Origin: Bacteroidota bacterium
Lineage (GTDB): Bacteria; Bacteroidota; Ignavibacteria; UBA10030; UBA8401
Reading direction: 5' to 3'
NCBI GenBank assembly: GCA_020052095.1
Contig: JAGVPT010000126.1
Location: forward strand, 1-35,696
DNA: 35,696 nucleotides
Made by a program: the position numbers and the translations under genes. Numbering within the stretch: position 1 is the first letter of the stretch; the number at the start of each line of letters is the position of its first letter. The notes under the pieces were generated by a model that worked only from the letters and a program-made list of their open reading frames with translations, had not been told where the DNA came from and searched no databases. Shown in pieces: positions 368-18,586 of the stretch.

Positions 368-1684
368 TTATTCCTTCTCCTTCGGTTTCCGCTTGGCAAA
401 GTCTTCGTCAAATTCTTTCCGCGTCTTCTCGATCAGATTCTCATTTTTCTTCATCTTGTCGGCCAGGCGCTCCTCGATCGTTGGCACGACTTCCGCCCTT
501 AGGAGAACAATGAGTTCCTTCTTGATATCGGTCTTCGTCTCTGAACCAAAAATGTAGCGCAGTCCAAAAATGTACCACGGCAGATCTTTGAGGAACGGAA
601 TTCCCGACCGCGAAGTTGATTGCTCGGTGGAATAGAGTCCTCCAATCACGGTCTCCTCTCCGTCGTTCAGCAGCAGGTACGTATCGATGGACGATTTGTC
701 GACGTTCGAGCCGCTTTGCTTGCTGTTCTCAACATGAATCTCTAGATTAATGAAACGAACTCCCTTGTCTTCATACAATATTGGCGTGACGCCAATAATA
801 ATTCCTGTCGCTATTTTTTGTTGGATAGTATTCCCCGCAAAATCTCTCGTTGTGACAAATATATCCGTGCCGATCTGGATATTCCCTTTTTTCCCTGAAG
901 AAACAATTATCTGCGGACTTGAGATGACGTCCCCGAGACCATTGCCCTGGAGAAACGAAATAAAACCGGTCAGATTGCTGAATCGAACATTGGGAACTAT
1001 TCTCGCTAAGAAAGCGTTCGGTTGCTGCGCTCCAGCACTCCCCGATCCGGACGCTGCCGTCGGATCTTCGAGGTTGCTTTTAAACTGACCGCCAAATTGC
1101 GTTGCTTTTCCCGCCGTAGTGTCGCCAAAATACAAATAGCTCCAGTTGATTCCTGTGTTAAGCGTTTTCGAAACGTCGACTGAAAAGAATACTGTCGAGA
1201 TTTTTATATCACGCGAAAGGAGCATCGCTTTTGATGCGGAATCCTTCGCAGCGGCCGCTCCCCCTCCTTTTGGTACGCCTCCCGTCAAAGAATCTGCCGG
1301 GTTGGTAATTTGAAAATATTCCTCCCTCTCTTCGTACCACAGTGAGTTTGCACGGAGCACAGTCTCGAATGCCTGCAACCAGTACATGTTCTCTATGTCG
1401 ACCCCTATTTCTTTTTTGTTGTATAAGGGATCTACGATGATCTTGTTCAGGTATTTCTTGCTGAAATCGGTGAAGAGCGACATTGATCTGTCAAACGGCA
1501 GCGTCTTCGACATTGAAATCAATTCTTCCGGCGAGACGTAATCGTTTAACAACACGCGCCTTTCACGATTTGATTGTGCCGTGGCCGAATACGATCCGAC
1601 AATCAACGCCGCGCAGAGATAGAGAAGGCCTGTTGCGGTAATCGACGACGTGACTCGTCGAGGATGAATACCCAGAATTTTCAT
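368..1684 (-). CDS. pilQ: type IV pilus secretin (PilQ-like, short)
   Basis: This is probably the outer-membrane secretin through which the pilus exits. The 438-residue product has an N-terminal hydrophobic signal ending near Ala-Thr-Ala-Gln (about 34-37). A secretin N0/STN-like domain follows (about 55-120), then a Gly/Ala-rich linker and the secretin barrel domain (about 150-400). Barrel hallmarks include the ISSPQIIVSSGKKG strand and GEETVIGGLYS followed by GIPFLKDLP. PilQ proteins are commonly about 700 residues with AMIN and N1 domains; this one is much shorter and lacks them. The charged Lys/Glu-rich tail is unusual. The gene starts 3 bases after the PilO-PilP stop, with AGGA just upstream, and is the last visible gene of the pilT-to-secretin operon. 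The family call is firm; assignment to PilQ rather than another secretin rests on context. Confidence 0.86.
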   Translation of the reverse strand: MKILGIHPRRVTSSITATGLLYLCAALIVGSYSATAQSNRERRVLLNDYVSPEELISMSKTLPFDRSMSLFTDFSKKYLNKIIVDPLYNKKEIGVDIENMYWLQAFETVLRANSLWYEEREEYFQITNPADSLTGGVPKGGGAAAAKDSASKAMLLSRDIKISTVFFSVDVSKTLNTGINWSYLYFGDTTAGKATQFGGQFKSNLEDPTAASGSGSAGAQQPNAFLARIVPNVRFSNLTGFISFLQGNGLGDVISSPQIIVSSGKKGNIQIGTDIFVTTRDFAGNTIQQKIATGIIIGVTPILYEDKGVRFINLEIHVENSKQSGSNVDKSSIDTYLLLNDGEETVIGGLYSTEQSTSRSGIPFLKDLPWYIFGLRYIFGSETKTDIKKELIVLLRAEVVPTIEERLADKMKKNENLIEKTRKEFDEDFAKRKPKEKE

Positions 1685-1687
1685 GGA

Positions 1688-2578
1688 TTAATTCCTCGTG
1701 GTTTTTTCTTTGAAGACAATCTTCTTACTCACTGTCTCGATGATGCCCCCGTTATTGAGCGTGAATTCGACGGTTCCTTCCTGCGGTTGGGTTGCCGTCA
1801 TCTTGCCGAGATATACTTCATCTCCCACCTGCAAGGTGATAAGTTTACCGGTTTGATCCATCACCAACGCTTTACCTGGCGCAACGGCCTTCACGTTAAT
1901 GGTCGCGATATCGAGAAGATTGCGGACATTCAACGGCGTCAGCCTCAGAATACTTGGAAGGAATGGATTCGAAGTGATAGGCTGGGGCACAGAGTCAGGC
2001 TTCATAACCCGCTTTCCCAAAGAGCGCTCGGGAGTATAAAACGCGTTCAATTCAATATCGTAGGCCAGTCCAACAGTCGGAAATTCCTGGTTGCCCTTCG
2101 TCTGTTCCTCACCGCGGAGACTGATGGTTGTAATCTTGTACAGCCGCCGCCCGTTCTCCAGAAGCCATATAAATCGGAAGATGTTCGGAAATTCCGCCGT
2201 GCCGGTCAATCTGTAGGTGTTATACCCATATTTCGGTGTGGCTCTCGTCCCGGTGTATTTCATGTTCAACCGCAGCGAACCGCTCTCGTCAATAATGTCG
2301 CTGAGATAGCCGTACGTCTGGGAAGAGATATCGAACTCTCCGATCTCTTTTGTTCTGTTGTTCCACCGGTGCACGGTCTCGCGCAGCTTGCCCTGCATTC
2401 CGGTGATCGCGCTTGTTTGTAACGTGTTGTCCTGCAATTTGCTTTCGATCTCTTTCGCCTCAGCTCTATACTTCTTTATCTTCCCCGGCTGATAAATGAA
2501 AGAGAAATATCCGCCAATGCCCACGACCAAAAACAGGATGATACCAAGTGCTATCGAATTTCGAATTTTATAGGACAC
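1688..2578 (-). CDS. pilO: pilus alignment protein, PilO-PilP fusion
   Basis: The 296-residue product probably bridges inner-membrane alignment proteins and the secretin. Residues 8-28 form one transmembrane helix. A coiled coil (about 30-80) and a PilO-like ferredoxin-fold region (about 85-180, ending LAYDIELNAFYTPE) follow. A Pro-rich linker with NPF (204-206) leads to a C-terminal beta domain (about 222-290) reading ALVMDQTGKLITLQVGDEV. This matches the PilP pattern of 'ALV.D..G....+.VGD'. PilO is normally about 200 residues and PilP is normally a separate lipoprotein, so this looks like a fusion. The start is GTG with an AAAGGG element 4-5 bases upstream; PilM-PilN ends 12 bases before. 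PilO identity is supported by position and topology, and the PilP part by the beta-domain motif only. Confidence 0.78.
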   Translation of the reverse strand: MSYKIRNSIALGIILFLVVGIGGYFSFIYQPGKIKKYRAEAKEIESKLQDNTLQTSAITGMQGKLRETVHRWNNRTKEIGEFDISSQTYGYLSDIIDESGSLRLNMKYTGTRATPKYGYNTYRLTGTAEFPNIFRFIWLLENGRRLYKITTISLRGEEQTKGNQEFPTVGLAYDIELNAFYTPERSLGKRVMKPDSVPQPITSNPFLPSILRLTPLNVRNLLDIATINVKAVAPGKALVMDQTGKLITLQVGDEVYLGKMTATQPQEGTVEFTLNNGGIIETVSKKIVFKEKTTRN

Positions 2579-2590
2579 AGATACCCTTTA

Positions 2591-4159
2591 TCAATCAGAA
2601 TCCAGCTTTTGAATGGTCAACACGAATTTGTACACAGTCTTCCCCCGTATCTCCTCCATTTCCACAGATTGCAATGTGGCCTTCTCAAACATGTTTGCGA
2701 TGCGCGGAATTCTGGGACGATACAGCGTGTACCCCGTCAGCACGATGGTGCTGTCGGCCGCCGTGAGAATATCCCGCACCCAAACCGAGTTAACGTCTTC
2801 AATGCTGTGCGTGAGGTGATAAAACACTTTGCTCCAGCGATTGTAATTCGGGACGATCAAATCGTACACCGCAAGCGCACTGATAAACTGTTGATTCTGC
2901 ACGGTCAGACTATCGAGGATAGTCTGTAAGCGTTCGTTTTCCGAAAGCTGAAGCTGCTTCTGCTGCAATTCCCTGTTCGCAATTCGCATTTCATCCGCCA
3001 AGTCGCCGACGCGGTTTGTGAAGAACAGCGTTCCGAGGAAAATCATCAGCATGAGAACGTATCCGTGCCATGCCAGCTTGAAGACTTTCTGCCCTTCTCG
3101 AAAACTTAGCGGCAGGAGGTCGACGGAATAGACGTTTGGGTTTTTCTGATCCAACGCCCGCATCGCCACGGAGATCGGGATTGCGTACTCCGAGATGATC
3201 TCTTCTACGTTTTCCTGTAATGCGCCGGTATCAAGATTTTTCGGAACGAGATACTCGATCGGGGCCTCGGCAAACTGCGGAGAAAGGAATTGTTTCAGCT
3301 CCAGTTTGTGGGCTTCGCCGGCAAGGAAAATCCTGTCGAGACGCATGATCCCAGCGCTGTCCTGCTCCAAAAGGATGCGTGAATACAGAGTGTTTTCAAT
3401 ATTGGCGGAGGTTCGACCTTCACTGATGACGGGCGCGAAGTGCAAGAAATCCTTCCCCTTCATGAAGATCAACCTGCTGAACTCGTTCCCCACATACATG
3501 ATGACCGAAATTTCCTCTGCGCCGATCTCATAATGCACGCGGACAAGATTCATCAGCGAGATGTCGGAAGTCTCGATGAAAGGTATCTGTGGTATGCGCT
3601 TGCCGATGAAATCTTTGATATTCTCCAGAATATCGATGAGGCTCAGTCCATCTTCACGGATAACAGAGAGTACCTGCCCTTCGGTCGCTTGAATGTACGC
3701 GACGGCGTCGGGATTTGGCTTTGACGCGCGAATTTTTGAGAGTTCTTCGACGAGCTTCTTCTTGAGTTTGCCGCCCGAAAGTCCAAAGGAATCCTCAAAC
3801 GTCTGGTAATAGACGCTCGGTTCTGAAATCGAATAGACAAATTGATATTTGTAGGAGGGGAATTCGGTGAGCAATCCTAGGAGAACACTGTTGTTCGTTT
3901 CTGCACCTTCAGTCTCCGCTGTTACACCCTCTTGGATCAGGGGGGTACTTGCGCCCGCATCGAGTAGATCAACGCCTTCCAGGCCAAGCCCGGCGTCTCC
4001 TGCCAACTGGCGCTCTTCGAGTTTCTTCACCAGGTTGACGGTCTTGAAATCTTCAAGATGGAATTGCTTGTTCTTCAGCCAAATATGAACAAACTTGACG
4101 TCTAGCCCGTCAACGAAAACGCCAAGCGCGGTTTTTCCTTCTCCTTTCGAATAGGGCAT
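2591..4159 (-). CDS. pilM: pilus alignment protein, PilM-PilN fusion
   Basis: The 522-residue product appears to join the cytoplasmic actin-like PilM and the membrane protein PilN. Residues about 10-340 look like PilM: ALGVFVDGLDVKFVHI opens the fold and the ISVIMYVGNEFSRLIF strand lies near 217-232. At 346-350 comes VDLLP, equivalent to the conserved N-terminal INLLP of PilN, which binds the PilM groove. A transmembrane helix (about 362-382), a coiled coil (385-430) and a periplasmic ferredoxin-like domain (about 435-520) complete the PilN half. In most pilus systems these are two genes. A low-complexity acidic insert (about 50-92) interrupts the PilM domain. No Shine-Dalgarno site is seen before the ATG. 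The gene follows the PilT gene after a 371-base gap containing repeats. Confidence 0.8.
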   Translation of the reverse strand: MPYSKGEGKTALGVFVDGLDVKFVHIWLKNKQFHLEDFKTVNLVKKLEERQLAGDAGLGLEGVDLLDAGASTPLIQEGVTAETEGAETNNSVLLGLLTEFPSYKYQFVYSISEPSVYYQTFEDSFGLSGGKLKKKLVEELSKIRASKPNPDAVAYIQATEGQVLSVIREDGLSLIDILENIKDFIGKRIPQIPFIETSDISLMNLVRVHYEIGAEEISVIMYVGNEFSRLIFMKGKDFLHFAPVISEGRTSANIENTLYSRILLEQDSAGIMRLDRIFLAGEAHKLELKQFLSPQFAEAPIEYLVPKNLDTGALQENVEEIISEYAIPISVAMRALDQKNPNVYSVDLLPLSFREGQKVFKLAWHGYVLMLMIFLGTLFFTNRVGDLADEMRIANRELQQKQLQLSENERLQTILDSLTVQNQQFISALAVYDLIVPNYNRWSKVFYHLTHSIEDVNSVWVRDILTAADSTIVLTGYTLYRPRIPRIANMFEKATLQSVEMEEIRGKTVYKFVLTIQKLDSD

Positions 4160-4530: not shown

Positions 4531-5808
4531 CTATGCCGTTGGTCCACCGGCTCCCAGCAATTGCTGCATGCGTTTCTTGTTGTTTGAATAGTTGATCGCG
4601 GACTCAAGAGAAATCTTCTTTTGGACAAATAACCTCTTCAAGTCTTGTTCCATCGTCGTCATCCCTTGGTCGCCAGATTCCTGGATCATCTGGTAAATCT
4701 CCCCCGTGTTGTTGTTCTTGATCGCCGAACGGACAGAAGGAGTCATGACCATGACCTCTCGAGCAAGTACTCTCTTTCCATCCAGGCTGGGAATAAGTTT
4801 CTGCGACATAACACATCGGCACACATCAGCCAGACGATTGCGAACTCGTTCCTGCTCCACCGGGGGTATTTCACCAATAATACGATCTATACTCTCCACT
4901 GCCGAGGCGGTGTGAAGTGTAGAGAATACCTTATGGCCGCTATCGGTAATTTCAAGCGACACCATGATTGTTTCCGGATCACGCATTTCACCGATCACAA
5001 TAATATCCGGATCTTGTCGCAGCGCCTGAATTGCTCCGTCTTTGAACGACGTTACATCACGTCCAACCTCGCGATGGCGGACAATGCATCTATCCGACTT
5101 GTGGACGAATTCGATCGGAGATGCAATCACGACGATATGCCCGTCAACCGTGTGATTGTTTAAATCAATCATCGCATCGAGCGTCGAACTCTTACCCGAG
5201 CCTGTAATACCTGTAACCAGCGTCAGCCCTTCTTTGGTGTGTGCAAGGCTGACTATTTTTGTGATATTTGGATGAAGCTCCAACGTTTTGTACGGACGAA
5301 TCGTCTGGTTGATCGCGCGCATGTTGAGCGCGACCTGATCCATGTCCAGGTACGCATCGGCGCGGAATCGGACCAACTTCTCGCCCTCCTGGATCATGTA
5401 CGAAAAATCCAGATTCTTGTTCTCGTACAATACCTGGCGCTGCCTCGCCATAAGTAGCGAGAGAATAAGAATATTAATTTCGTCCGAACCCAGTTTTTCG
5501 ATAGTCGGATCCGGTTTTTTAGAACCGAAAATCCGATACCAAATTAACCCCTGTCCGCCAAACCCTCCTAAATCAATATCTGATGCACCAATGGTGAACA
5601 TGCGCATCAGAAGTGAATTTACCAATTCTCGAAGGAGAGTCCTGCTCTCAATTGGAAGCTTTTCGACGAGATCGCCTATGAAAATCTGGCGTTCCAGTCC
5701 GAACACGCTTTCGGGAATTGTGGCGACCTGCTGCTTCAAGAACTCGCGCGCTTTTGTCTGAGCGTCATCAACTGGCGCCACCGTTTGCGCCGGGTTCAAC
5801 GTATCCAT
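4531..5808 (-). CDS. pilT: PilT-family pilus ATPase (probable retraction motor)
   Basis: The 425-residue product is a hexameric secretion ATPase of the PilT/PilU branch, expected to drive pilus retraction at the inner membrane. An N-terminal extension of about 70 residues precedes the usual GASDIDL motif (74-80). Walker A is GITGSGKS (200-207), Walker B DPDIIVIGEMRD (266-277) and the His box GHKVFSTLHT (291-300). The Asp box normally reads IEDPIE, but here it is IASPIE (228-233), so two acidic positions are Ala and Ser. There is no tetracysteine zinc motif, which distinguishes it from PilB. It heads the pilT-PilMN-PilOP-secretin unit, about 97 bases downstream of a strong promoter. The start ATG has no clear Shine-Dalgarno sequence. 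The family is certain; the retraction role is inferred. Confidence 0.9.
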   Translation of the reverse strand: MDTLNPAQTVAPVDDAQTKAREFLKQQVATIPESVFGLERQIFIGDLVEKLPIESRTLLRELVNSLLMRMFTIGASDIDLGGFGGQGLIWYRIFGSKKPDPTIEKLGSDEINILILSLLMARQRQVLYENKNLDFSYMIQEGEKLVRFRADAYLDMDQVALNMRAINQTIRPYKTLELHPNITKIVSLAHTKEGLTLVTGITGSGKSSTLDAMIDLNNHTVDGHIVVIASPIEFVHKSDRCIVRHREVGRDVTSFKDGAIQALRQDPDIIVIGEMRDPETIMVSLEITDSGHKVFSTLHTASAVESIDRIIGEIPPVEQERVRNRLADVCRCVMSQKLIPSLDGKRVLAREVMVMTPSVRSAIKNNNTGEIYQMIQESGDQGMTTMEQDLKRLFVQKKISLESAINYSNNKKRMQQLLGAGGPTA

Positions 5809-6250: not shown

Positions 6251-7456
6251 TCATTCGAGCCACGAAAGAATTTCGTAGCTACTCGTCGTGGGAAACTCGG
6301 GCGGGTTATCAGTTAAGAAGCGCTGGTCGTATTGAAGTGAAAGGTTATAGCCTTTTCTAAGGGCGCCCGAAGCCCCATTTGACGTGGCATAAAGGTTCTT
6401 GACGATCATACCGCCTACAACCGTAAGTGTTCCAGCGGGACGTGACGTACCGTTCTTAACGCTCATGCCGCCTCCTTCGCTGTACATTGAAGCCATCACG
6501 TTGAAGCTTGTCGCCCCATTATCCATTATTTGTATATCGCCTTTGCTGATAATCCCCAACATATCGGTGGAGGAAGGGTCAATTCGAGGGTCTGCACTGT
6601 ACACCAGGTCATTTTCAACAAATACTTTTCCACCGACGGTGCCGGAACTCTTGTTTGCAACAATCGACGCCCTCCCTTTTACCGTCCCCTGAACGTAGAT
6701 ATTCGCCTTGTCAACTTCAATGATGCCGTTTGGGGCAAATGCGGTCAATTCTGCCTCCGTTACAGTACCCGTCGGAGAAGTCTTCCAGAGAAGCCTTCCG
6801 TTTGGCAGAAAAGTTAGATAGAGATCCGTCCCAACTTGCTTGTACCCCCCATTCGACGCGATGGAATCCAAGGTACTAAAAGCTGTCGTCGGCAACGGAA
6901 TGCTCACGCCAGTCTCATAACCTCCGTTGAAGTAGGGTTTAGCGGGAGAACCGGACTTGATCAACCCGGTTTTCGTGGTGACCTTTCCTTGAAATACAGG
7001 CTGACCGTATGTCTTCAGCGTCCCTTCGACATGCATGGGCCCGGTAACCGTATCTCCCGTCTCCCATGCTGCCGCGGCAGCGCCTGAGCCTCCCCAAAAT
7101 GCAAACTTCGCAAAAGAGCTGGGCTGAAGGAGTATCTTAATCGAGTAGTTACTCCCGTCATAAATCGCGGTCGATACGACCTGGATATTTTTCGTGCCGC
7201 TGACCGGAGTAACGGTAACCGAAAATGTGCCGCCGGCAAACGGAATGTTTGAATATCCGGTACGCCAATTCCCTACCAGGAAGATTTGATTGCATGCAAA
7301 ATTCGCCCCCGCTTCTGCAATGTTGTGGATGGAGGTGTTTTCGTAATAGTTGATCGCTGTCTTAAACGCTTCGGTACTAACGTTCGATAAGTTTCTTCCC
7401 GTCATCAAGAACACCAGGGTGAAACCCATCACGAGAAATATCGACGACCGTCCCAT
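6251..7456 (-). CDS. minor-pilin-like protein, PilX-like, DUF4900-type
   Basis: The 401-residue product begins MGRSSIFLVMGFTLVFLM, a short hydrophobic segment directly after Met-Gly. The remainder is extracellular-type: an Asn/Gly/Thr-rich repeat-like beta region including GPMHVEGTLKTYGQPVFQG (about 130-150), which resembles DUF4900 beta-solenoid proteins. Position and topology suggest a PilX-like minor pilin or pilus-tip protein that could prime assembly or bind a surface. It lacks the GFTLIE-type cleavage site. GGAAGGAAG lies upstream of the ATG. It follows the PilW-like gene by 30 bases. The pilus role is inferred from context; the beta-solenoid reading is moderate. Confidence 0.65.
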   Translation of the reverse strand: MGRSSIFLVMGFTLVFLMTGRNLSNVSTEAFKTAINYYENTSIHNIAEAGANFACNQIFLVGNWRTGYSNIPFAGGTFSVTVTPVSGTKNIQVVSTAIYDGSNYSIKILLQPSSFAKFAFWGGSGAAAAAWETGDTVTGPMHVEGTLKTYGQPVFQGKVTTKTGLIKSGSPAKPYFNGGYETGVSIPLPTTAFSTLDSIASNGGYKQVGTDLYLTFLPNGRLLWKTSPTGTVTEAELTAFAPNGIIEVDKANIYVQGTVKGRASIVANKSSGTVGGKVFVENDLVYSADPRIDPSSTDMLGIISKGDIQIMDNGATSFNVMASMYSEGGGMSVKNGTSRPAGTLTVVGGMIVKNLYATSNGASGALRKGYNLSLQYDQRFLTDNPPEFPTTSSYEILSWLE

Positions 7457-7486: not shown

Positions 7487-8131
7487 TTATCGGTTTCTGA
7501 GATTTCGAGACACCAAACGCACCTGCCTCCAAAATGCCGAAGAATACTCCCTGTCGAATCTTGCCGTATTGAATCGAAGAGCGGTAGCAGCAAGATTCTC
7601 AACCTGCACCGTAATTTGCATCGTCCAAATACTACCGGGGTTCACGATAGGATATCCGAGCGTATCCTTCATCGCATCAAAATACTTCAAGCTAAACTCG
7701 GTCACGCCCAAGTTTGCACCTTTCGGCGGTTTGTTGTTCTCTACTCGGTACAATATCCGGTCTCGCGGATTTGGAGTTATTGAGAGCTCACTGGTGGGAC
7801 CAAGATAATAGTACAGAATGTCAAGGTTGCCGTCGCCGTCAGGGTCCGAAGGCGTGCCTAAGTCGGTGTAGAACTTTATCCTCGTCGAATCGGCAAGGAT
7901 GATTGCTTTGGTCGGGTCAGGGAATTGAGTAGGGTCTTTGCAGTATCCAATCCTCCGAAAATCGTACTCAATCATGCGCGAGACCATGACGATATTATCC
8001 TGGACAAGAAGGTCTCCGTTATACCTCTGAAGATTCTCGTTGACTGACCCATTCAGACGGATCGTCATCAGCAGCAATGTGCCGAACGTAATCGAGGACC
8101 CTATGATATCCAGCATAACTTGTGAGCCCAT
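7487..8131 (-). CDS. minor-pilin-like protein (PilW-like)
   Basis: The 214-residue product starts MGSQVMLDIIGSSITFGTLLL, again Met-Gly plus a short hydrophobic helix (about 6-24). A helical stretch follows containing QDNIVMVSRMIEYDFRRIGY (about 45-64), a pattern typical of PilW/GspJ-type minor pseudopilins. A beta-rich C-terminal domain completes the protein. There is no canonical prepilin leader and no Glu5. A GAGG element lies about 13 bases before the ATG. It stands between the PilV-like and PilX-like genes, the usual minor-pilin order. Function is inferred from neighbours and the N-terminal helix. Confidence 0.65.
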   Translation of the reverse strand: MGSQVMLDIIGSSITFGTLLLMTIRLNGSVNENLQRYNGDLLVQDNIVMVSRMIEYDFRRIGYCKDPTQFPDPTKAIILADSTRIKFYTDLGTPSDPDGDGNLDILYYYLGPTSELSITPNPRDRILYRVENNKPPKGANLGVTEFSLKYFDAMKDTLGYPIVNPGSIWTMQITVQVENLAATALRFNTARFDREYSSAFWRQVRLVSRNLRNR

Positions 8132-8354: not shown

Positions 8355-8846
8355 TTATCGGAAGTACCAATAGCTGTAAACGTCGTAGAACTTCAACGTG
8401 TCGGTCATGGATGGGCTTGACACTTTCACAGTAATTCTTTTGTTGTAGGTCCGCGTTCCGGAAACAACAATTGTGCTCCCAGAGATACTAACGTAATCCA
8501 CATCGACTCTCGTCGTAAACACGGCAGAGCCTTGAAGGCTGTCCACCCTCACCAAACCCTCGAAATCGTCATAATCATCGTAGTCAGGATAAACTTCCCC
8601 GCTCTCCGGTCCGAGCGTCGTGGAAAGGAAAGAGGTGTTGTTGATACTGCTAGTGTCGGTCGCTTCGTCAAACGCCATCCCGGAAGCCTCTTCAAGAATC
8701 GAAGTCCCCAGCGAGGTCCCGGTGATCCGGTAGGCCGACATCTCAATGGCAGCGCCGCTCATTGCAGTTCCCGTGTTGACGGAGAGGATCAGCCTGCCAA
8801 GCATCATCGTTGCCATGATTGTGAGAAGTGTCTGTCCCGTTCCCAT
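8355..8846 (-). CDS. minor-pilin-like protein (PilV-like)
   Basis: The 163-residue product starts MGTGQTLLTIMATMMLGRLIL, a hydrophobic helix directly following Met-Gly. A Thr/Ser-rich beta domain with an acidic YPDYDDYDDFEGL segment (about 92-104) follows. DYDDFEGLVR-like segments are common in PilV/GspI-type prepilins. There is no GFTLIE motif and no Glu5. GGAG lies 9-10 bases upstream of the ATG. It is the first of three consecutive minor-pilin-like genes downstream of pilB. The pilus role is inferred from position and topology. Confidence 0.65.
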   Translation of the reverse strand: MGTGQTLLTIMATMMLGRLILSVNTGTAMSGAAIEMSAYRITGTSLGTSILEEASGMAFDEATDTSSINNTSFLSTTLGPESGEVYPDYDDYDDFEGLVRVDSLQGSAVFTTRVDVDYVSISGSTIVVSGTRTYNKRITVKVSSPSMTDTLKFYDVYSYWYFR

Positions 8847-9128: not shown

Positions 9129-10916
9129 TTACTCCTCCTCGACCGTCGTGGAAATGACTTCTTCGAGACTGGTGCTGCCTTCTTTCATTCTTTCCATGCC
9201 GGATCTGCGCAGTGTCCACATACCGTCTTTCGCAGCCTGATCGCGGATTGAATTTTCGTCCACCTTATCGCCGGCATTTAAAATAATGTTCTTGATTGCT
9301 TTACTAAAGAAGAGCGCTTCGTGAATTGCGGCACGACCTTTATAGCCTCCGTTACATTTATCGCAACCGACTGCTTTATACATTTTATGAGCGTGGAGTT
9401 CCTCTTCGGTAAAACCAAACTTTATCAAGTCCGGCCAATCTTCCTCGGTGACGGGCTGCTTGCAAAGCTTACACAGTGTTCGAATAAGGCGCTGCGCCAC
9501 AATGATGTTGATAGCGTAGGCTATCAAGAATGGTTCGATGCCCATTTTGTACAAACGAGCAACGGCGCTCGGCGCGTCGTTCGTGTGCAACGTCGAAAAC
9601 ACCAAGTGACCGGTATTCGCAAGCTTGATCGCAGTCTCCGCCGTAATCTTATCGCGCATTTCACCGACGAGAACTATGTCGGGGTCATGTCGCAATATAC
9701 CTCTGATGGATTGTTCGAACGACATCTTCGGACCGATCTTCAACTGGCGCGCGCCTTTAATAATGTACTCAACCGGTTCTTCAATCGTCAAAACGTTTAC
9801 CGTCGGATCGATGACTTGGTACAACGCGGCAATCAGTGTAGTGGATTTTCCGGAACCCGTTGGTCCCGTAAGGATGATAATGCCCTGAGGCTTCTTGATT
9901 GCTCTATCGAAAAACGCGCGGGCCGGTCCCTGCAACCCGAGTTTGTTGAGATCGGTGATAACTTTGCGGTCATCGAGAACGCGGATAACGACGCTTTCAA
10001 ACTTATGCTTGAAATCTGTCGTTACAATCGGCATGATGGACACGCGGAATCGCAATTGGTGACCATCGATGACGCGTTGGATAAAACCGTCTTGCGTCGC
10101 CTCACGCTCAAAGCGGTCGACGTTTTTTGTTCTATCCTTTACGACTGCGAGAACTGCCTCCGGCATCGTGTTTTCCTGACGGTGCCACACCTGCAAATTA
10201 CCGTCAAGGCGGAACAAGAAGTTTGTCACATTTCCTTCGGAGGGGACGATGTGGATATCGCTCACATCCTTGCGCACGGCTTCAACGATGCATCCTTCAA
10301 TCAGATTGGCAAGAGCGCTCTTGCTGATTTCGGCTTCGAGCGCCTCTTCATCGACCGATACGTCGTCGGTGCCGGAGTCAACACTGATCTGATTGTCCTC
10401 GAGCAGTTTTAGAAATTCATTTTGCGGCGGGATGACCTGTTCGAGCAGGTTCTGCAATTCTTTCAGGCGGACGTACGTCACCTCATACTTCTTGGCATTG
10501 AAATTTCTTGCGATAAGCGGGATATTTCTGTCAGTCGGGTCTGCACAAATGATAATGAGCTTGTCCCCCTGCTTTTCGTCGAATTTCAGCGGGAGCATCT
10601 TCGACTGTATGAGCATATCCCGGTACGAGTCCTGCAATCCGTCGACGAACTTTCGGATGAATTCGATACGCCCCTTGTCGGTAACTTCGTCCGCAAGATA
10701 AATTTCCCGGAAGGCATAGAGGTTAGCAACTTCACGAAACACTGCGTCGTGATCGGCGTTGAATTCGGTCACAAGAATCTGGCCGAGGTTGCGCCTCTCC
10801 TTCTTATTGGTTTCTGATTCCTTGACTCTAAGTGATTTTTCCAGAGTCTCGTAATCGATGATTCCTTTTTTCAGAAGGGTGTAGCCAATCTTATCAGTGA
10901 TATCGACATCAGCCAT
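9129..10916 (-). CDS. pilB: type IV pilus extension ATPase PilB
   Basis: The 595-residue product is the assembly ATPase that powers pilin polymerisation. It has an N-terminal T2SSE-N/MshEN-like region (about 1-170), where c-di-GMP-type control is known in some homologues, then the RecA-like ATPase core. Visible motifs are Walker A GPTGSGKS (351-358), an intact Asp box TIEEPVE (377-383), Walker B DPDIVLVGEMRD (411-422) and the His box GHLVFSTLHT (436-445). The tetracysteine zinc site is Cys482, Cys485, Cys518 and Cys521. Length is near the family norm. A GGGAAGGGAA stretch precedes the ATG. It follows pilC with a repeat element in between, the reverse of the common pilB-pilC order. Confidence 0.95.
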   Translation of the reverse strand: MADVDITDKIGYTLLKKGIIDYETLEKSLRVKESETNKKERRNLGQILVTEFNADHDAVFREVANLYAFREIYLADEVTDKGRIEFIRKFVDGLQDSYRDMLIQSKMLPLKFDEKQGDKLIIICADPTDRNIPLIARNFNAKKYEVTYVRLKELQNLLEQVIPPQNEFLKLLEDNQISVDSGTDDVSVDEEALEAEISKSALANLIEGCIVEAVRKDVSDIHIVPSEGNVTNFLFRLDGNLQVWHRQENTMPEAVLAVVKDRTKNVDRFEREATQDGFIQRVIDGHQLRFRVSIMPIVTTDFKHKFESVVIRVLDDRKVITDLNKLGLQGPARAFFDRAIKKPQGIIILTGPTGSGKSTTLIAALYQVIDPTVNVLTIEEPVEYIIKGARQLKIGPKMSFEQSIRGILRHDPDIVLVGEMRDKITAETAIKLANTGHLVFSTLHTNDAPSAVARLYKMGIEPFLIAYAINIIVAQRLIRTLCKLCKQPVTEEDWPDLIKFGFTEEELHAHKMYKAVGCDKCNGGYKGRAAIHEALFFSKAIKNIILNAGDKVDENSIRDQAAKDGMWTLRRSGMERMKEGSTSLEEVISTTVEEE

Positions 10917-10951: not shown

Positions 10952-11114
10952 CTCATGTTACGCAGAGTTTAAAAGCCTTGCCACCAAGGCACGAAGACAC
11001 TAAGGCTCTTTAAGGAAAGCTGCATTTTGTAATGTCCATTAATAAAAAAGGTTGTTTTTCTTAGTGACTTCGTGACTTCGTGGCAATAATATTGGCGTTT
11101 TGCGTACCATCAGT
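10952..11114. repeat. TIR element copy C
   Basis: The ends read CTCATGTTACGCAGAG (left) and, on the minus strand, ACTGATGGTACGCAAAAC (right). The right terminus touches the pilC stop codon (TAA followed immediately by CTGATGG). The central block is nearly identical to copy B and lies in the same orientation. Inner motifs TTGCCACCAAGGCACGAAG and CTTCGTGACTTCGTGGCAA are inverted, so the element is a long imperfect palindrome. It fills almost all of the pilC-pilB gap. Confidence 0.78.
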
Positions 11115-12496
11115 TAGATGAAGGATCTCAACATGTGGACAACATGGATGAGAAGCCCTCCGCCGCCCGGAGGTTTTGGTTTGATCGTTGCCGTCTCGGA
11201 TGATACGAGGGTCAATCCCGTTAACACAATCATGATGATCATGGATATGACAAGCTGGATTAGGTCGATCGCATTGCGCATGCGATATCCGGTTTCTTTT
11301 TCATAGTAGTCGGCGAGCTGCAACGCGGAGTTCTTCACGTTGCCGGTTTCCGCCCCTGAATGGAATCGTGAGATGGCTGTTTTTGTGAACACACCGGTTG
11401 CCTCGAAGGCTTCGGTGATGTTCATTCCTTTTTCAACCATCAACGGAAGCGCAACCGTCCTGATTTGAGCTTCCATGTATTTGTTGCCGCACGCCTCCGC
11501 CGCCATCTTGATCACTTCAATATTCTCTCCCGAACCGCTGTAGAGGGCGTAAAAGACACGGCAGAAAATTTCAATGCTCGTTTTGTGCATCAGATCGCCG
11601 ATGGCCGGAATCTTCCACATGTACTGGTCGAGGATATATCTGCCCTTTTCTGTCGAGGCAAATCGAAGAAAGGCGACCAAAGGCACTGCGAATGAGAGAA
11701 CAATCCAAAGTATATTTTCAATGATAAAATCGCTCAGTTTCAAGGTTGTTCGTGTCATCGGCGGCAGTTCAATCTTGAATTTCACGAACAAACTTGCCGT
11801 GGCCGGAAAGATGTATGCGACGTAGTACCCGACTGCACCGAACAAGATCACCAGGGTGACCACCGGCATGATCAACGCGCTCTTCAGATTTTTTTTGAAT
11901 TCGGCGTTGCGTTCAAGAAATTTCGCGGTGCTTTCGTAAATTTCTGCCATGTTGCCGCTCTTCGATGCGAGGCCCAGCATGTGAGCGGCGAACTTGCCCA
12001 ATTCTTTTTCGTGCTTCACGAACGCCTTCTCGCTGTCCTTTCCTTGTTTCAGTTCCTGATTAATATCGCGGAGGCACTCCCGGAGATTCTTATTCTGGAT
12101 ATCGTTGATGAGAAGCTGCATCATTTCATTGAAAGGGAGTTTCTGCCTGATAAGATCGGAGCTGACGCGAACAAATGAGACGACATCCGTCGGGGGAACC
12201 GACCCTACCTTGTCAAATAGCTTCTTGCGGACATAGAGGACTTGATACCCCATTTTCAAAAGAGCGTCCGTAACTTCCTGCTTGGTGAACGCTTTTTGTT
12301 CGCCGTCAATTTTTTCGTCCCCCTTTTTTACTCTGTAGAGGAATGTGGAACGGACCTGCACTCCAGTCAATTTGAACTTTCGCTCTTGCGCCATCTGTTC
12401 GGCGCGTTGTTTGGCAAGCTTCAACGTGTCCGCATTGATAATTCCCTGGATCGGTTTCCCGGCCAATGAAAGTCCTTCAATTCGAAACTCTGCCAT
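11114..12496 (-). CDS. pilC: type IV pilus inner-membrane platform protein PilC
   Basis: The 460-residue product is the polytopic platform protein of the T2SSF family that couples PilB/PilT to pilin loading. An N-terminal cytoplasmic region (about 1-110) is followed by two T2SSF helical domains. Membrane segments lie at about 206-228 (LIMPVVTLVILFGAVGYYV), about 260-280 and near the C terminus (LIQLVISMIIMIVLTG). FHSGAETGN in the second domain is a typical T2SSF motif. The length is slightly above the usual 400-410 because of the N-terminal part. AAGGGA lies about 10 bases before the ATG. It is the first gene after the predicted promoter at 12576-12604. Confidence 0.93.
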   Translation of the reverse strand: MAEFRIEGLSLAGKPIQGIINADTLKLAKQRAEQMAQERKFKLTGVQVRSTFLYRVKKGDEKIDGEQKAFTKQEVTDALLKMGYQVLYVRKKLFDKVGSVPPTDVVSFVRVSSDLIRQKLPFNEMMQLLINDIQNKNLRECLRDINQELKQGKDSEKAFVKHEKELGKFAAHMLGLASKSGNMAEIYESTAKFLERNAEFKKNLKSALIMPVVTLVILFGAVGYYVAYIFPATASLFVKFKIELPPMTRTTLKLSDFIIENILWIVLSFAVPLVAFLRFASTEKGRYILDQYMWKIPAIGDLMHKTSIEIFCRVFYALYSGSGENIEVIKMAAEACGNKYMEAQIRTVALPLMVEKGMNITEAFEATGVFTKTAISRFHSGAETGNVKNSALQLADYYEKETGYRMRNAIDLIQLVISMIIMIVLTGLTLVSSETATIKPKPPGGGGLLIHVVHMLRSFI

Positions 12497-12575: not shown

Positions 12576-12604
12576 AAGATACTACGGCAGACAACAAAAA
12601 TCAA
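12576..12604 (-). promoter_or_regulatory. predicted promoter for pilC-pilB-minor pilins
   Basis: TTGATT (12604-12599), a 17-base spacer and TATCTT (12581-12576) on the minus strand fit a sigma-70-like promoter about 80 bases before pilC. The -35 hexamer overlaps the edge of the modular repeat that begins at 12602, so the repeat may have supplied part of it. Confidence 0.5.
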
Positions 12605-12779
12605 CTGTCGGTGGCGTCTCATTTTGTAGGAATTGAGGCAGTCAACAAGCTATCCGATTGCTGCGAGCAATCGGGTAGATCGAAACTGCACCACTACCCA
12701 ACTGTCGGTGGCGGGGTCTTTTGAGAAGTGATGCCATGACTCTCGCTATTGATTTAAGGGAGAAAGTCATGGCATCACT
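12602..12779. repeat. modular hairpin repeat, copy 1
   Basis: A direct repeat of CAACTGTCGGTGGCG (12602-12616 and 12699-12713) brackets a block with a 13-bp hairpin (CTATCCGATTGCT, loop GCG, AGCAATCGGGTAG; 12650-12678). Then come GGCGGGGTCTTTTGA (12710-12724) and a 15-bp hairpin, AGTGATGCCATGACT (12727-12741) with AGTCATGGCATCACT (12765-12779). Related modules recur at 15385-15507 and 18668-18845 in different arrangements. No transposase gene is present. Confidence 0.75.
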
Positions 12780-12802: not shown

Positions 12803-12838
12803 ATAAAAAAGGAGGTACGCCACATCCACGGCGTGCCT
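12803..12838 (-). terminator. intrinsic terminator after the pilin array
   Basis: On the minus strand a 9-bp stem (AGGCACGCC with GGCGTACCT, one G-U pair, 12813-12838) is followed by CC and TTTTTT (12810-12805). It lies 3' of the three pilin genes and the truncated pilin tail, so it should end the pilin transcript before pilC. The stem resembles the hairpin at 13606-13637. Confidence 0.75.
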
Positions 12839-12891: not shown

Positions 12892-12996
12892 CTAATTAAT
12901 TTTGGTCAGGGTTTGGCTCGAAATGGTCTCATCGAACTCAGACTCTGGAAACGTCCCGTCGTTAAATACAGGTTTGCCAACACCGTGCGGCGAGAA
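12892..12996 (-). pseudogene. truncated pilin C-terminal fragment
   Basis: Directly after the third pilin, in a different frame, the minus strand encodes HGVGKPVFNDGTFPE and then SEFDETISSQTLTKIN before a TAG stop (12894-12892). This aligns with the last 31 residues of the three intact pilins (HGVGK, DGTFPE, then a ...QT.TK.N end). There is no start codon, N-terminal helix or upstream pilin body in that frame. It is a partial fourth copy, left by unequal tandem duplication or deletion, or possibly a silent donor cassette. The hairpin at 12803-12838 lies 3' of it just as a similar hairpin lies 3' of an intact pilin. Confidence 0.8.
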
Positions 12997-12998
12997 AC

Positions 12999-13412
12999 CT
13001 AATTGACTTTCGAAAGCGTTTGGGTCTGGATGGTCACTGTCAGATCGTACTCCGGGTACGTCCCGTCGGGCATCGTGACCTTACCGACACCGTGGAGGAC
13101 GACTTGAGTTGAAGTTCCGTCTGTCTTGATCGTATACGTGCCGTTTGCGTTATTGGTATATTTGACTCCGGCCAGCATACCGATGCCGCGGTCGTCCGCA
13201 GTAAGCCCAACAAAGGACTTGCTACCTCCGCCCATGGTCATAGGCCTGGAGTAGTAATGTTGTGCTTTTGATCCCAGCAATTTCAAATCAGCAATCACCA
13301 AAACCCGATTATGATCAACGGCATTATCCTGAAACATTCCGATGCCGACCACTACGGCGACGCCGATGATAATCAACCCCAGTATGATCAGAAGAAATTG
13401 CTGCTGTCCCAT
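12999..13412 (-). CDS. major-pilin-like protein, paralogue 1
   Basis: The 137-residue product starts MGQQQFLLIILGLIIIGVAV, so the hydrophobic helix starts within six residues of the N terminus. A polar helix (about 28-60: MFQDNAVDHNRVLVIADL) and a small Gly-rich beta head domain with NNANGTYTIKT and HGVGK motifs follow. There is no cysteine pair, no GFTLIE leader and no Glu5. It is the most diverged of three equally long paralogues (for example KLLGSKAQHYYSRP against TTLAAKAQQYYAKP). The start has no Shine-Dalgarno sequence, but a promoter at 13469-13497 could express it alone. It is a pilin by topology, repetition and proximity to pilC-pilB; structural confirmation is lacking. Confidence 0.75.
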   Translation of the reverse strand: MGQQQFLLIILGLIIIGVAVVVGIGMFQDNAVDHNRVLVIADLKLLGSKAQHYYSRPMTMGGGSKSFVGLTADDRGIGMLAGVKYTNNANGTYTIKTDGTSTQVVLHGVGKVTMPDGTYPEYDLTVTIQTQTLSKVN

Positions 13413-13468
13413 AATTAGTTGAGTTTGGTTAGTTTAGGTGAACGAGATCCCACACTTACACTCAGGCA

Positions 13469-13497
13469 AAAATACAATCGCCACAATCAAAAATCAA
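13469..13497 (-). promoter_or_regulatory. predicted promoter of pilin paralogue 1
   Basis: TTGATT (13497-13492), a 17-base spacer and TATTTT followed by TG (from 13474 down) match both a sigma-70 layout and the Bacteroidota-style TAnnTTTG -7 element. It points at the pilin starting at 13412, with a leader of about 50 bases. Confidence 0.55.
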
Positions 13498-13605
13498 GTA
13501 TTTAATATCTTTATCCAGAAAATCTCGGCAAAATTGCAGGATTCCGAGCAATTATCGAGTCCCCTTGCTGCCATAACTACAATCTCATATCAGACGAAAC
13601 ATGAA

Positions 13606-13637
13606 GGCAGGCATGCCACAATTATGGCATACCTGCC
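13606..13637 (-). terminator. hairpin after pilin paralogue 2
   Basis: GGCAGGTATGCCA and TGGCATGCCTGCC form a 13-bp stem (one G-U pair) with a 6-base loop on the minus strand, 20 bases after the pilin 2 stop. The following bases are only moderately T-rich (TTCATGTTT), so it may be a weak terminator or an mRNA-stabilising 3' hairpin. Its sequence is related to the terminator at 12803-12838. Confidence 0.55.
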
Positions 13638-13657
13638 CGTTGGAATTAGACACTTCC

Positions 13658-14071
13658 TTAGTTGACCTTCGTTGGTAATTGTGTCTGGAAAGTCACCGTC
13701 ATATCGTATGTCGGGAATGTCCCATCGGTCAGCGCAGTCTTGCCTACTCCACGAAAAACAAGTGTGGTGGCTGTGCCTGCTGTCTTGATCGTATACGTGC
13801 CATTAGCATTGTTCGTGAATGCCGATGATGCAAGCAATCCTAATCCAACCGAATCAGCACTCAAACCTACGAACGAATTGCCACCGCCACCCAGTGTGGT
13901 CGGCTTGGCATAGTATTGCTGACCTTTTGCCGCAAGCGTGGTTAAGTCAGAGATCACCGCACTTCGGTTTTGGTCAACCGCATTGTCCTGGAACATCGTG
14001 ATACCGACCGCTACTGCTATACCGACGATGATCACGCCCAAGATGATTAAAAGAAGCTGTTGCTGTCCCAT
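13658..14071 (-). CDS. major-pilin-like protein, paralogue 2
   Basis: The 137-residue product (MGQQQLLLIILGVIIVGIAV...) is very close to paralogue 3 over the first 35 residues and has the same head-domain layout (LGGGGNSF, NNANGTYTIKT, RGVGK, DGTFP). As in its sisters, Met-Gly is followed at once by the hydrophobic helix, and there is no cysteine or Glu5. It has by far the best ribosome-binding site of the array: AGGAGG at 14082-14077, five bases before the ATG. It is therefore likely the most efficiently translated and a candidate for the main subunit. It lies 63 bases after paralogue 3, with which it is probably co-transcribed. Confidence 0.78.
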   Translation of the reverse strand: MGQQQLLLIILGVIIVGIAVAVGITMFQDNAVDQNRSAVISDLTTLAAKGQQYYAKPTTLGGGGNSFVGLSADSVGLGLLASSAFTNNANGTYTIKTAGTATTLVFRGVGKTALTDGTFPTYDMTVTFQTQLPTKVN

Positions 14072-14076
14072 AAAAA

Positions 14077-14082
14077 CCTCCT
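14077..14082 (-). promoter_or_regulatory. strong ribosome-binding site of pilin paralogue 2
   Basis: A perfect AGGAGG lies five bases before the ATG, between T-runs. The other two pilin genes have no comparable site, which predicts unequal translation of the three paralogues. Confidence 0.7.
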
Positions 14083-14134
14083 AAAAAAATATGTGAATGA
14101 TTTGTTAGTTAGTTGTACCGCGTGAATGTGAATC

Positions 14135-14548
14135 TTATTTAATCTTATTTGGCGTTTGTGTTTGAGTTGTCACTGTCATATCATACTCGGGGAAGTTTGT
14201 TGCATCTATTGCAACCTTACCAACACCGTGCAACACAACTTGTGTTGAAGTTCCCGCTGTCTTAATCGTATATGTACCATTCGCGTTGTTTGTAAATGCA
14301 GTAGAAGCCAAGATTCCAAGACTTGTAGAATCAGTCGAAAGACCTGCAAACGATTTGCCGCCGCCGCCAAGACTTACTGGCTTTGCATAGTACTGCTGTG
14401 CCTTCGCTGCCAACGTTGTCAAGTCGCCAATCACGGCGGTGCGGTTTTGATCCACAGCATTATCCTGGAACATCGTGATTCCGACGACTACAGCTACACC
14501 AACTATGATGACTCCAAGAATTATCAGAAGAAGCTGCTGTTGGCCCAT
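14135..14548 (-). CDS. major-pilin-like protein, paralogue 3 (first in the array)
   Basis: The 137-residue product (MGQQQLLLIILGVIIVGVAV...) has the N-terminal helix, the MFQDNAVDQNR linker and a Gly-rich head (LGGGGKSF, NNANGTYTIKT, HGVGK). Its C terminus ends NKIK, whereas the sisters end KVN. The segment TSTQVVLHGVGKV is shared with paralogue 1 while the N-terminal half is closest to paralogue 2. Such a mosaic could reflect gene conversion. No Shine-Dalgarno sequence is apparent. It is the promoter-proximal gene, with a possible sigma-54 element about 85 bases upstream. Pilin identity is inferred as for paralogues 1 and 2. Confidence 0.77.
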   Translation of the reverse strand: MGQQQLLLIILGVIIVGVAVVVGITMFQDNAVDQNRTAVIGDLTTLAAKAQQYYAKPVSLGGGGKSFAGLSTDSTSLGILASTAFTNNANGTYTIKTAGTSTQVVLHGVGKVAIDATNFPEYDMTVTTQTQTPNKIK

Positions 14549-14988: not shown

Positions 14989-15360
<372 letters not shown>

Positions 15361-15384
15361 TTAATGAAGTGGGCTCAGTTGAAT

Positions 15385-15507
15385 AGTGATGCCATGAATT
15401 CTACTGTTTTGGTTGTGCCATTCTCTCAATTCTCGCGGGTTCAATTGAGAAAGTCATGGCATCACTTGGTTAATCAATGACGCAAAAATCAAAAGATCCC
15501 ACCACCG
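15385..15507. repeat. modular hairpin repeat, copy 2
   Basis: Ends AGTGATGCCATGA (15385-15397) and TCATGGCATCACT (15454-15466) are inverted, with an inner TCTCAATT/AATTGAGA pair. On the minus strand CGGTGGTGGGATCTTTTGA (15507-15489) and about 60 following bases parallel the plus-strand sequence from 18766 in copy 3. It fills the secA-glnB gap and starts four bases after the secA stop codon. It lacks the CTATCCGATTGCT hairpin of the other copies. Confidence 0.7.
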
Positions 15508-15511
15508 AATG

Positions 15512-18500: not shown

Positions 18501-18586
18501 CGATTGATCTCTTCTACCCTCGGCAAGAGCAATCGGACGTCTTTTTCATGTTTGCCGCCGAATATTTTCTTCAATATATCTAACAT
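15512..18586 (-). CDS. secA: preprotein translocase ATPase SecA
   Basis: The 1024-residue motor drives Sec-dependent export at the SecYEG channel. Walker A MATGEGKT (157-164), DEVDSVLIDEARTPLIISG (nucleotide domain 1), the TDIKLG motif and GRSGRQGDPG (domain 2) are intact. The C-terminal zinc and SecB-binding tail has CPC (1010-1012) and NCH (1020-1022). It is longer than the E. coli form (901) because of inserts around residues 300-390, including an Arg/Lys-rich region near ANRGAPKNKKLIK. Such inserts are usual in the Bacteroidota/Chlorobiota side of the tree. AGGGAG precedes the ATG by four bases, and a promoter lies at 18625-18653. It appears to be monocistronic. Confidence 0.97.
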   Translation of the reverse strand: MLDILKKIFGGKHEKDVRLLLPRVEEINRHFESYKSLSDDELKAKTEEFKKRIADATADVNARLGELREQLKSDTTFEERETAYDEIDEAEKELHETVKESLDEILPEAFAVVKETCRRLLGQMWEVAGNKSVWDMVPFDVQLIGGIVLHQGKISEMATGEGKTLVATLPMYLNALAGRGVHLVTVNDYLALRDSQWMGKIFEFHGLKVGCILQNQEPQQRRVQYAADITYGTNNEFGFDYLRDNMVGTPDDMVQRGHYYAIVDEVDSVLIDEARTPLIISGPVEVDDQKFGEMKPRVERLVTAQRNLVAKIVSDAELLFQDEKKKDDAGILLLRANRGAPKNKKLIKIFSDGASKKLMLETANIYLAEQSKRMHEIDDELYYAIDEQNHSIDLTEKGRELLAGSTDTDFFVLPDIGTEVSVVENTPGLTAEQKQVKKDEINKLYAERSDRIHTVLQLLKAYSLYEKDDEYVVTDDGKVMIVDEFTGRLLHGRRYSDGLHQAIEAKEGVKVERDTQTLATVTLQNYFRLYKKLAGMTGTAETEAAEFFEIYKLDVVSIPTNKKAIRADVEDVVYKTIREKYNAVISEIEDMRGMRRPVLVGTTSVEVSETISRMLKRKSVPHNVLNAKQHQREAEIVQNAGLPGAVTIATNMAGRGTDIKLGPGVRDVGGLHIVGTERHEARRIDRQLRGRSGRQGDPGSSKFFLSLEDDLLRLFGSDRIAGIMERMGLQEGEVIQHSMITKSIERAQKKVEENNFGIRKRLLEYDNVMNQQREVIYAKRRHALLGERLKDDIFSMLSDFVDELVEKYYDEGDLVGLKENLRVNLLVDFNVTPEQFQKLGKEGVKNEAVTVASEFYKRKEEKIGAEIMGALERMAMLQVIDIRWKEHLREMDDLKEGIHLRAYGQKDPILEYKGEAFRMFMEMIGMINREALNLVFKLFPETTERIPIQRARRSLRKDQLTMTHDAATGLGFQANREPVEGSEGARGAQPPAPKVQQLHAVEKVGRNDPCPCGSGKKYKNCHGK

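What the first reader, a model, noticed from the sequence alone, without database searches (positions are those of the whole stretch)
12892..14548. Three equal-length pilin paralogues followed by a start-less pilin tail
Seen: three 137-codon pilin genes in tandem, then a fragment in another frame that matches their last 31 residues, each unit associated with related hairpins. The paralogues form a mosaic: paralogue 3 shares its front half with 2 and its TSTQVVLHGVGKV segment with 1. Inference: repeated unequal recombination. The fragment is either dead debris or a silent cassette feeding pilin variation, as pilS does in Neisseria.
Basis: partly seen in the sequence, partly recalled or inferred. 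Interest (0 to 1): 0.62.

Follow-up and report, generated by a model that had tools for sequence, protein, structure and literature searches.

The report
Leaderless pilins without a pilin-cutting enzyme
The three pilin genes are real and ordinary duplicates, but they belong to a pilus-type machine, widespread in one group of bacteria, whose subunits appear to be made without the leader piece that other pilins must have cut off, in genomes where the enzyme that cuts it cannot be found.

Summary
Three 137-codon genes lie on the minus strand, followed by a start-less 32-residue pilin tail. The recombination reading is weak: the paralogues are saturated at synonymous sites, the "mosaic" segment is retained ancestry, and the tail shares at most 12 identical bases with any paralogue, so it is debris of a lost copy and not a pilS-like cassette. 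The copy next to pilC (p3) has its own orthologue in the sister genome.

The surprise lies elsewhere. These pilins, and three minor pilins in the same cluster, begin at Met-Gly, where the mature pilin should begin. Predicted structures are pilin and GspJ-type folds, with model residue 3 or 4 on mature residue 1. 175 of 187 start sites allow no longer leader. Prepilin peptidase (Peptidase_A24), core to type IV filaments, is undetectable in this genome and in 144 of 159 class genomes with this pilin, including a closed one matching Melioribacter roseus in length, whose authors reported pilA and pilD missing. Where the enzyme occurs, it sits beside a canonical pilin in 12 of 15 genomes. I infer a class-wide type IV filament with leaderless, peptidase-independent subunits. 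No experiment shows it yet.

The parts
14135..14548 (-). p1, major pilin-like protein, 137 aa, starts MGQQQLLLIILG, no leader beyond Met-Gly
   Evidence: in-frame stop after 5 upstream codons, no alternative start; pilin fold
13658..14071 (-). p2, major pilin-like protein, 137 aa; AGGAGG Shine-Dalgarno motif directly before ATG
12999..13412 (-). p3, second pilin next to pilC; orthologue of S_d in the sister genome
   Evidence: clade 100/99
12892..12990 (-). start-less pilin tail, remnant of a lost fourth copy
13605..13638 (-). strong hairpin after p2, at the same place as a hairpin in the sister genome; putative terminator or attenuator between major pilins and p3
12817..12834 (-). related hairpin after the tail
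11114..12496 (-). PilC-type platform protein (T2SSF)
   Evidence: PF00482 1e-30
9129..10916 (-). PilB-type assembly ATPase (T2SSE)
   Evidence: PF00437 1.6e-97
8355..8846 (-). minor pilin-like protein, starts MGTGQTLLTIMA, leaderless; role inferred from N-terminus and position
   Evidence: no Pfam pilin match
7487..8131 (-). minor pilin-like protein with GspJ/XcpW-type fold, starts MGSQVMLDIIGS, Asp8 invariant in 21 rows, leaderless
6251..7456 (-). large minor pilin-like protein, starts MGRSSIFLVMGF, leaderless; role inferred from N-terminus and position
4531..5808 (-). PilT-like ATPase
   Evidence: PF00437 1.1e-33
2591..4159 (-). possible PilM/PilN-like inner-membrane component; assignment by position only
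   Evidence: no meaningful Pfam match
1688..2578 (-). possible PilO/PilP-like inner-membrane component; assignment by position only
368..1684 (-). secretin
   Evidence: PF00263 3.9e-28

Best explanation
The array is the major-pilin end of a type IV filament machine (pilins, PilC, PilB, three minor pilins, PilT-like ATPase, secretin). Its subunits are translated without the usual 6-26 residue leader: the nascent chain starts at Met-Gly, at the -2/-1 position of the mature pilin, and goes straight into the membrane helix. Shown by sequence or model: the short N-termini, the loss of Glu5 in the major pilin, the pilin folds, the gene neighbourhood, and the lack of any detectable Peptidase_A24 in this genome and most of its class. 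Inferred: the subunits are inserted N-in, lose at most the initiator Met (Met before Gly is a methionine aminopeptidase substrate, from general knowledge), and are extracted and assembled by PilB/PilC with no prepilin peptidase step. Tandem duplication supplies several near-equivalent major pilins plus a distinct pilC-proximal pilin; the hairpin between them may keep major-pilin expression above the rest. The tail is the 3' remnant of a copy lost by deletion.
For: Start sites: of 187 unique pilin and minor-pilin starts in the window and relatives, 12 have any in-frame ATG/GTG/TTG upstream; residue 7 (the +5 position) is Leu in 132 of 134 pilins and Glu in none (3 ORFs were dropped for not fitting the N-terminal pattern, 1 was truncated). 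In the window all six subunit genes start at Met-Gly with no alternative start. Structure: the p1 model (pLDDT 87) matches PilV at Z 9.5 and full-length PAK and gonococcal pilins at Z 7.8, 7.1 and 6.7, with model residue 4, 4 and 3 on mature residue 1; the 214-aa minor pilin matches type IV-like pilins and GspJ/XcpW pseudopilins at Z 9.5-11.7, against 3.8 for the first unrelated row, with model residue 4 on mature residue 1 of a pseudopilus model. Peptidase: PF01478 none in the own genome at E <= 10, 12 of 14 controls positive; PF06750 only two sub-cut-off matches with stops inside. Class: pilin in 159 of 293 genomes, PilC in 158, 156 shared, PF01478 in 15 of 293, so 144 of 159 pilin genomes have none; a profile of the class's own A24 enzymes finds 14 of 293 strongly and not the own genome. 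The enzyme tracks canonical N_methyl pilins: 12 of 15, on the same contig within about 1.2 kb, Fisher p 1.2e-14; five such loci read directly show a GFSxxE pilin, four of them with further T2SS-type genes beside it. G174, a closed contig of 3,300,414 bp equal to the published M. roseus chromosome, has two MGQQQ pilins before pilC and two ATPase genes and no PF01478 match; [quoted passage not shown]
Against: No filament or processed subunit has been seen. An unrelated or very divergent peptidase cannot be excluded by homology searches. 15 of 159 pilin genomes, and 10 of 20 further genomes carrying the pilin, do have an A24 enzyme, so it could act on these pilins there. Gly at -1 is kept in all 134 counted pilins, as a peptidase site would be, although the counting pattern required it. 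Foldseek alone gives only E 0.16 for the best pilin and the sequence profile only E 0.11 (Geobacter geopilin). A few minor pilins in relatives start Met-Asn or Met-Phe, which methionine aminopeptidase should not trim. Six genomes have N_methyl matches without an A24 match.
Confidence: 0.72

Rival explanations
1. An unrecognised peptidase, unrelated in sequence to Peptidase_A24, removes Met-Gly, and the exposed Gln is capped as pyroglutamate.
For: Gly2 is kept in all 134 counted pilins and Gln3 is nearly invariant in the 42-row alignment. Gln directly after the signal peptidase site is frequent in Ignavibacterium album (77%, PMC5837995, passages), and a lactam-cyclised archaeal pilin N-terminus is cited in PMC4471445 (passages).
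Against: The residue after Gly is Ser or Thr in several major pilins and variable in minors; some minors of distant relatives lack Gly2. No extra membrane protein gene was seen in the pilin cluster of the window.
Confidence: 0.17
2. The tail and array are a silent-cassette variation system like Neisseria pilS/pilE.
For: Tandem paralogues plus a start-less tail.
Against: Saturated synonymous divergence, no codon excess in the mosaic segment, longest exact tail-paralogue match 12 bases, no dispersed cassettes, p3 has its own orthologue.
Confidence: 0.03
3. The machine is a type II secretion-like pseudopilus rather than an extended pilus; the leaderless subunits remain but the function is secretion. 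This differs from the best explanation in function only, so the two can both hold.
For: The 214-aa minor pilin has a GspJ/XcpW-like fold; the secretin scores slightly higher with GspD than PilQ, both far under their cut-offs.
Against: A PilT-like ATPase sits in the cluster; the major pilin model is nearest to PilV and PAK pilin among the listed rows.
Confidence: 0.3

Closest known systems
Type IVa pili (PilA/PilB/PilC/PilT/PilQ)
   Same: ATPases, platform protein, secretin, a pilin fold with an N-terminal long helix, minor pilins in the cluster
   Different: No 6-26 residue leader, no Glu5 in the major pilin, no detectable PilD
Type II secretion system minor pseudopilin GspJ/XcpW
   Same: Fold of the 214-aa protein (Z about 10-11)
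   Different: No leader; sits with a PilT-like ATPase
Cytophaga hutchinsonii Bacteroidetes-type T2SS (PMC5553014, passages)
   Same: Divergent type IV filament system in the wider Bacteroidota
   Different: It has a Peptidase_A24 gene (chu_3197) beside its major pseudopilin gene
MSHA pilus loci (PMC6668835, passages)
   Same: Locus without a prepilin peptidase gene
   Different: Those genomes always carry another system with the enzyme; here most genomes have none
Neisseria pilE/pilS
   Same: Pilin gene plus start-less pilin sequence (comparison from general knowledge)
   Different: No recombination signal, no dispersed cassettes

Membership tests
Type IV filament superfamily | Traffic ATPase and polytopic platform protein | tested here: met
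   PF00437 and PF00482 in the window; PilC in 158 of 293 class genomes
Type IV filament superfamily | Subunits with the type IV pilin fold | tested here: met
   Two AlphaFold models, best PDB matches pilins and pseudopilins; sequence and Foldseek support for p1 is weak
Type IV filament superfamily | Class III signal peptide: hydrophilic leader of 6-26 residues ending in Gly, Glu5 | tested here: not met
   Leader is Met-Gly; 175 of 187 starts allow no longer one; no Glu at +5 in 134 pilins. Definition from PMC4471445 (passages)
Type IV filament superfamily | Dedicated prepilin peptidase | tested here: not met
   No PF01478 in own genome; absent in 144 of 159 pilin genomes of the class; a non-homologous enzyme is not excluded
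Type IVa pilus | Secretin and PilT-like ATPase | tested here: met
Type IVa pilus | PilM, PilN, PilO, PilP alignment complex | tested here: inconclusive
   Two large ORFs in the right place without Pfam match
pilS-type silent pilin cassettes | Sequence identity that permits recombination with the expressed gene | tested here: not met
   Longest exact match 12 bases, 62 of 99 bases identical to p3
pilS-type silent pilin cassettes | Recombinant expressed pilins among strains | not testable with these tools
   No strain set or reads

The most novel reading that the evidence does not exclude
A whole class of bacteria runs a type IV filament machine that has dispensed with prepilin processing: major and minor pilins are synthesised in mature form, without leader, without the Glu5 of the major pilin and without prepilin peptidase, so the step held universal for this superfamily is not needed for membrane extraction and assembly.
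Probability: 0.62. Interest if true: 0.88.

Novelty: new variant of a known kind. Interest (0 to 1): 0.74.

Why it matters
Leader cleavage by a dedicated peptidase is treated as a universal, defining step of type IV pili, type II secretion and archaella. A class-wide natural exception would show which parts of the class III signal are needed for insertion and assembly, and would mean that profile-based censuses miss such pilins. It would also account for the 'missing' pilA and pilD in Melioribacter roseus. It is directly testable, since a cultured member exists.

Tried and rejected
Rejected: silent-cassette variation and recent mosaic recombination; an Rfam element in the window (0 matches); a canonical pilin family for p1, p3 or the minors (Pfam and NCBIfam gave none above cut-off); contig gaps as the reason for the missing peptidase (single-contig pilin genomes such as G147, G174 and G196 also lack it). 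The weak extra matches of the A24 profile (20 genomes, E 5e-5 to 0.075) were discarded as short partial matches, many with stops inside; one of them is in G174. PF01478 in G186 (E 0.006) was kept in the count of 15 but is not supported. The 163-aa and 401-aa minor proteins were not modelled. In the start-site count 3 ORFs were dropped because their N-terminus did not fit the pattern and 1 because it was truncated; the pattern itself asked for Gly in pilins, so the 134 of 134 Gly2 is partly built in, and one pilin read starts Met-Val-Val-Gly. The link of G174 to Melioribacter roseus rests on an exact chromosome length only.

Literature: ten searches of an open-access library found no description of leaderless or peptidase-independent type IV pilins; subscription papers and preprints were not searched. 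PMC4471445, PMC6668835, PMC3534657, PMC5317091, PMC7399161, PMC5553014 and PMC5837995 were seen as passages only; the other papers as search listings only.

Full report
Observation. The three 137-codon ORFs are real and lie on the minus strand at 14135-14548, 13658-14071 and 12999-13412. A start-less tail follows at 12892-12990. Direct-repeat spacing between tail and p3 is 107 nt, hence the frame change. The tail matches p3 at 62 of 99 bases, reached by 0 of 2000 shuffles; first and second codon positions (24 and 23 of 33) are better kept than third (15 of 33), as if most divergence happened while it was coding, so I read it as the remnant of a fourth paralogue. Hairpins follow p2 and the tail but not p1; the sister genome G001 has a similar hairpin after its last major pilin copy.

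Paralogues. Pairwise nucleotide identity is 66-68% with 37-43% at third positions, and dS is saturated or near it. The supposed mosaic segment shares 7 of 13 codons between p1 and p3 against 30 of 77 elsewhere (p 0.37), and VVLHGVG is present in four of six sister copies. In a tree of 42 pilins p3 groups with the pilC-proximal copy of the sister genome (100/99); eight pilC-proximal copies of other family members form their own group (92/91, not starred), so a separate second pilin is common although a single origin is not shown. G001 has whole recent copies, 99% identical in protein. The tail has no counterpart downstream of the p3 orthologue in G001.

The machine. The window holds PilB, PilC, PilT-like ATPase and secretin genes, and relatives keep the order pilins-pilC-pilB-minor pilin genes, with pilT after them where the fetched stretch reaches it. 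The pilin is found in 53 of 60 close relatives and 159 of 293 genomes of the class; 156 of these also have PilC, of 158 with PilC.

No leader. All six subunit genes of the window start at Met-Gly with 1 to 10 open codons upstream before an in-frame stop and no alternative start; p2 has AGGAGG before its ATG. Over 187 unique starts in window and relatives 12 have any upstream in-frame start. A review gives leaders of 6-26 residues and an almost invariant Glu5 (PMC4471445, passages). The models place the nascent N-terminus at the mature one: p1 residue 3 or 4 on residue 1 of full-length pilins, the 214-aa minor pilin residue 4 on residue 1 of a pseudopilus model. The p1 profile finds Geobacter pilin only at E 0.11, and Foldseek finds PAK pilin at E 0.16, so the pilin assignment rests on fold ranking, context and helix pattern together. 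In the 214-aa protein an Asp is invariant at column 8; in relatives with a two-residue shorter N-terminus it falls at residue 6, that is +5 after loss of Met.

No peptidase. PF01478 is absent from the own genome at E <= 10, from 54 of 60 relatives and from 278 of 293 class genomes; all 15 positives carry the pilin, so 144 of 159 pilin genomes lack it. A profile from the class's own enzymes finds 14 strongly. 12 of the 15 also have canonical N_methyl pilins, on the same contig within about 1.2 kb; in the ten positives whose leaderless-pilin place was listed, that pilin lies on another contig than the enzyme. Five such loci read directly show a pilin with a long leader and GFSxxE. In 20 further genomes holding the pilin, chosen by me from 78 named loci and titled Kryptonia, KSB1, Calditrichota, Zixibacteria, Ignavibacteria and others, 10 have the enzyme; of 9 of these tested, 8 have N_methyl, against 1 of 10 without the enzyme. 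One of the 20, G313, has the same match place as G143 and is probably that genome again.

A cultured case. G174 is one contig of 3,300,414 bp, the published length of the Melioribacter roseus chromosome (PMC3534657, passage). It has two MGQQQ pilins before pilC and no PF01478 match. [quoted passage not shown] My reading supplies the pilA and suggests that pilD is not needed.

Mechanism. Shown: N-termini, gene content, co-occurrence. Inferred: N-in insertion, at most Met removal, assembly by PilB/PilC without processing. Whether the product is a long pilus or a secretion pseudopilus is open. Membership: it meets the ATPase, platform and fold criteria of the type IV filament superfamily and fails leader and peptidase, so I call it a variant and not a standard type IV pilus.

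Noticed in passing
12727-12779: Inverted repeat, 18-nt arms (94% complementary) with 17-nt loop, between the tail and pilC; function unknown.
   Followed up: no
12602-12616 and 12699-12713: Exact 15-nt direct repeat, 97 nt apart, in the tail-pilC gap.
   Followed up: no
14989-18586: A P-II-like protein gene and secA lie directly upstream of the pilin array; the pair is also near the pilins in G015 and G010.
   Followed up: partly
L037:4940-5353 and L038:4835-5248: The sister genome G001 has two solitary extra pilin genes outside the cluster, one about 99% identical in protein to array copies.
   Followed up: partly
G194:C1:2518637-2519617: Single-contig genome with a second PilC-type gene holding a stop codon and no peptidase match: possible decayed canonical system.
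   Followed up: no
7487-8131: Invariant Asp near the N-terminus of the GspJ-like minor pilin, while the major pilin has no acidic residue there.
   Followed up: partly
6251-7456: Large minor pilin-like protein with weak DUF4900 similarity, under the cut-off.
   Followed up: no
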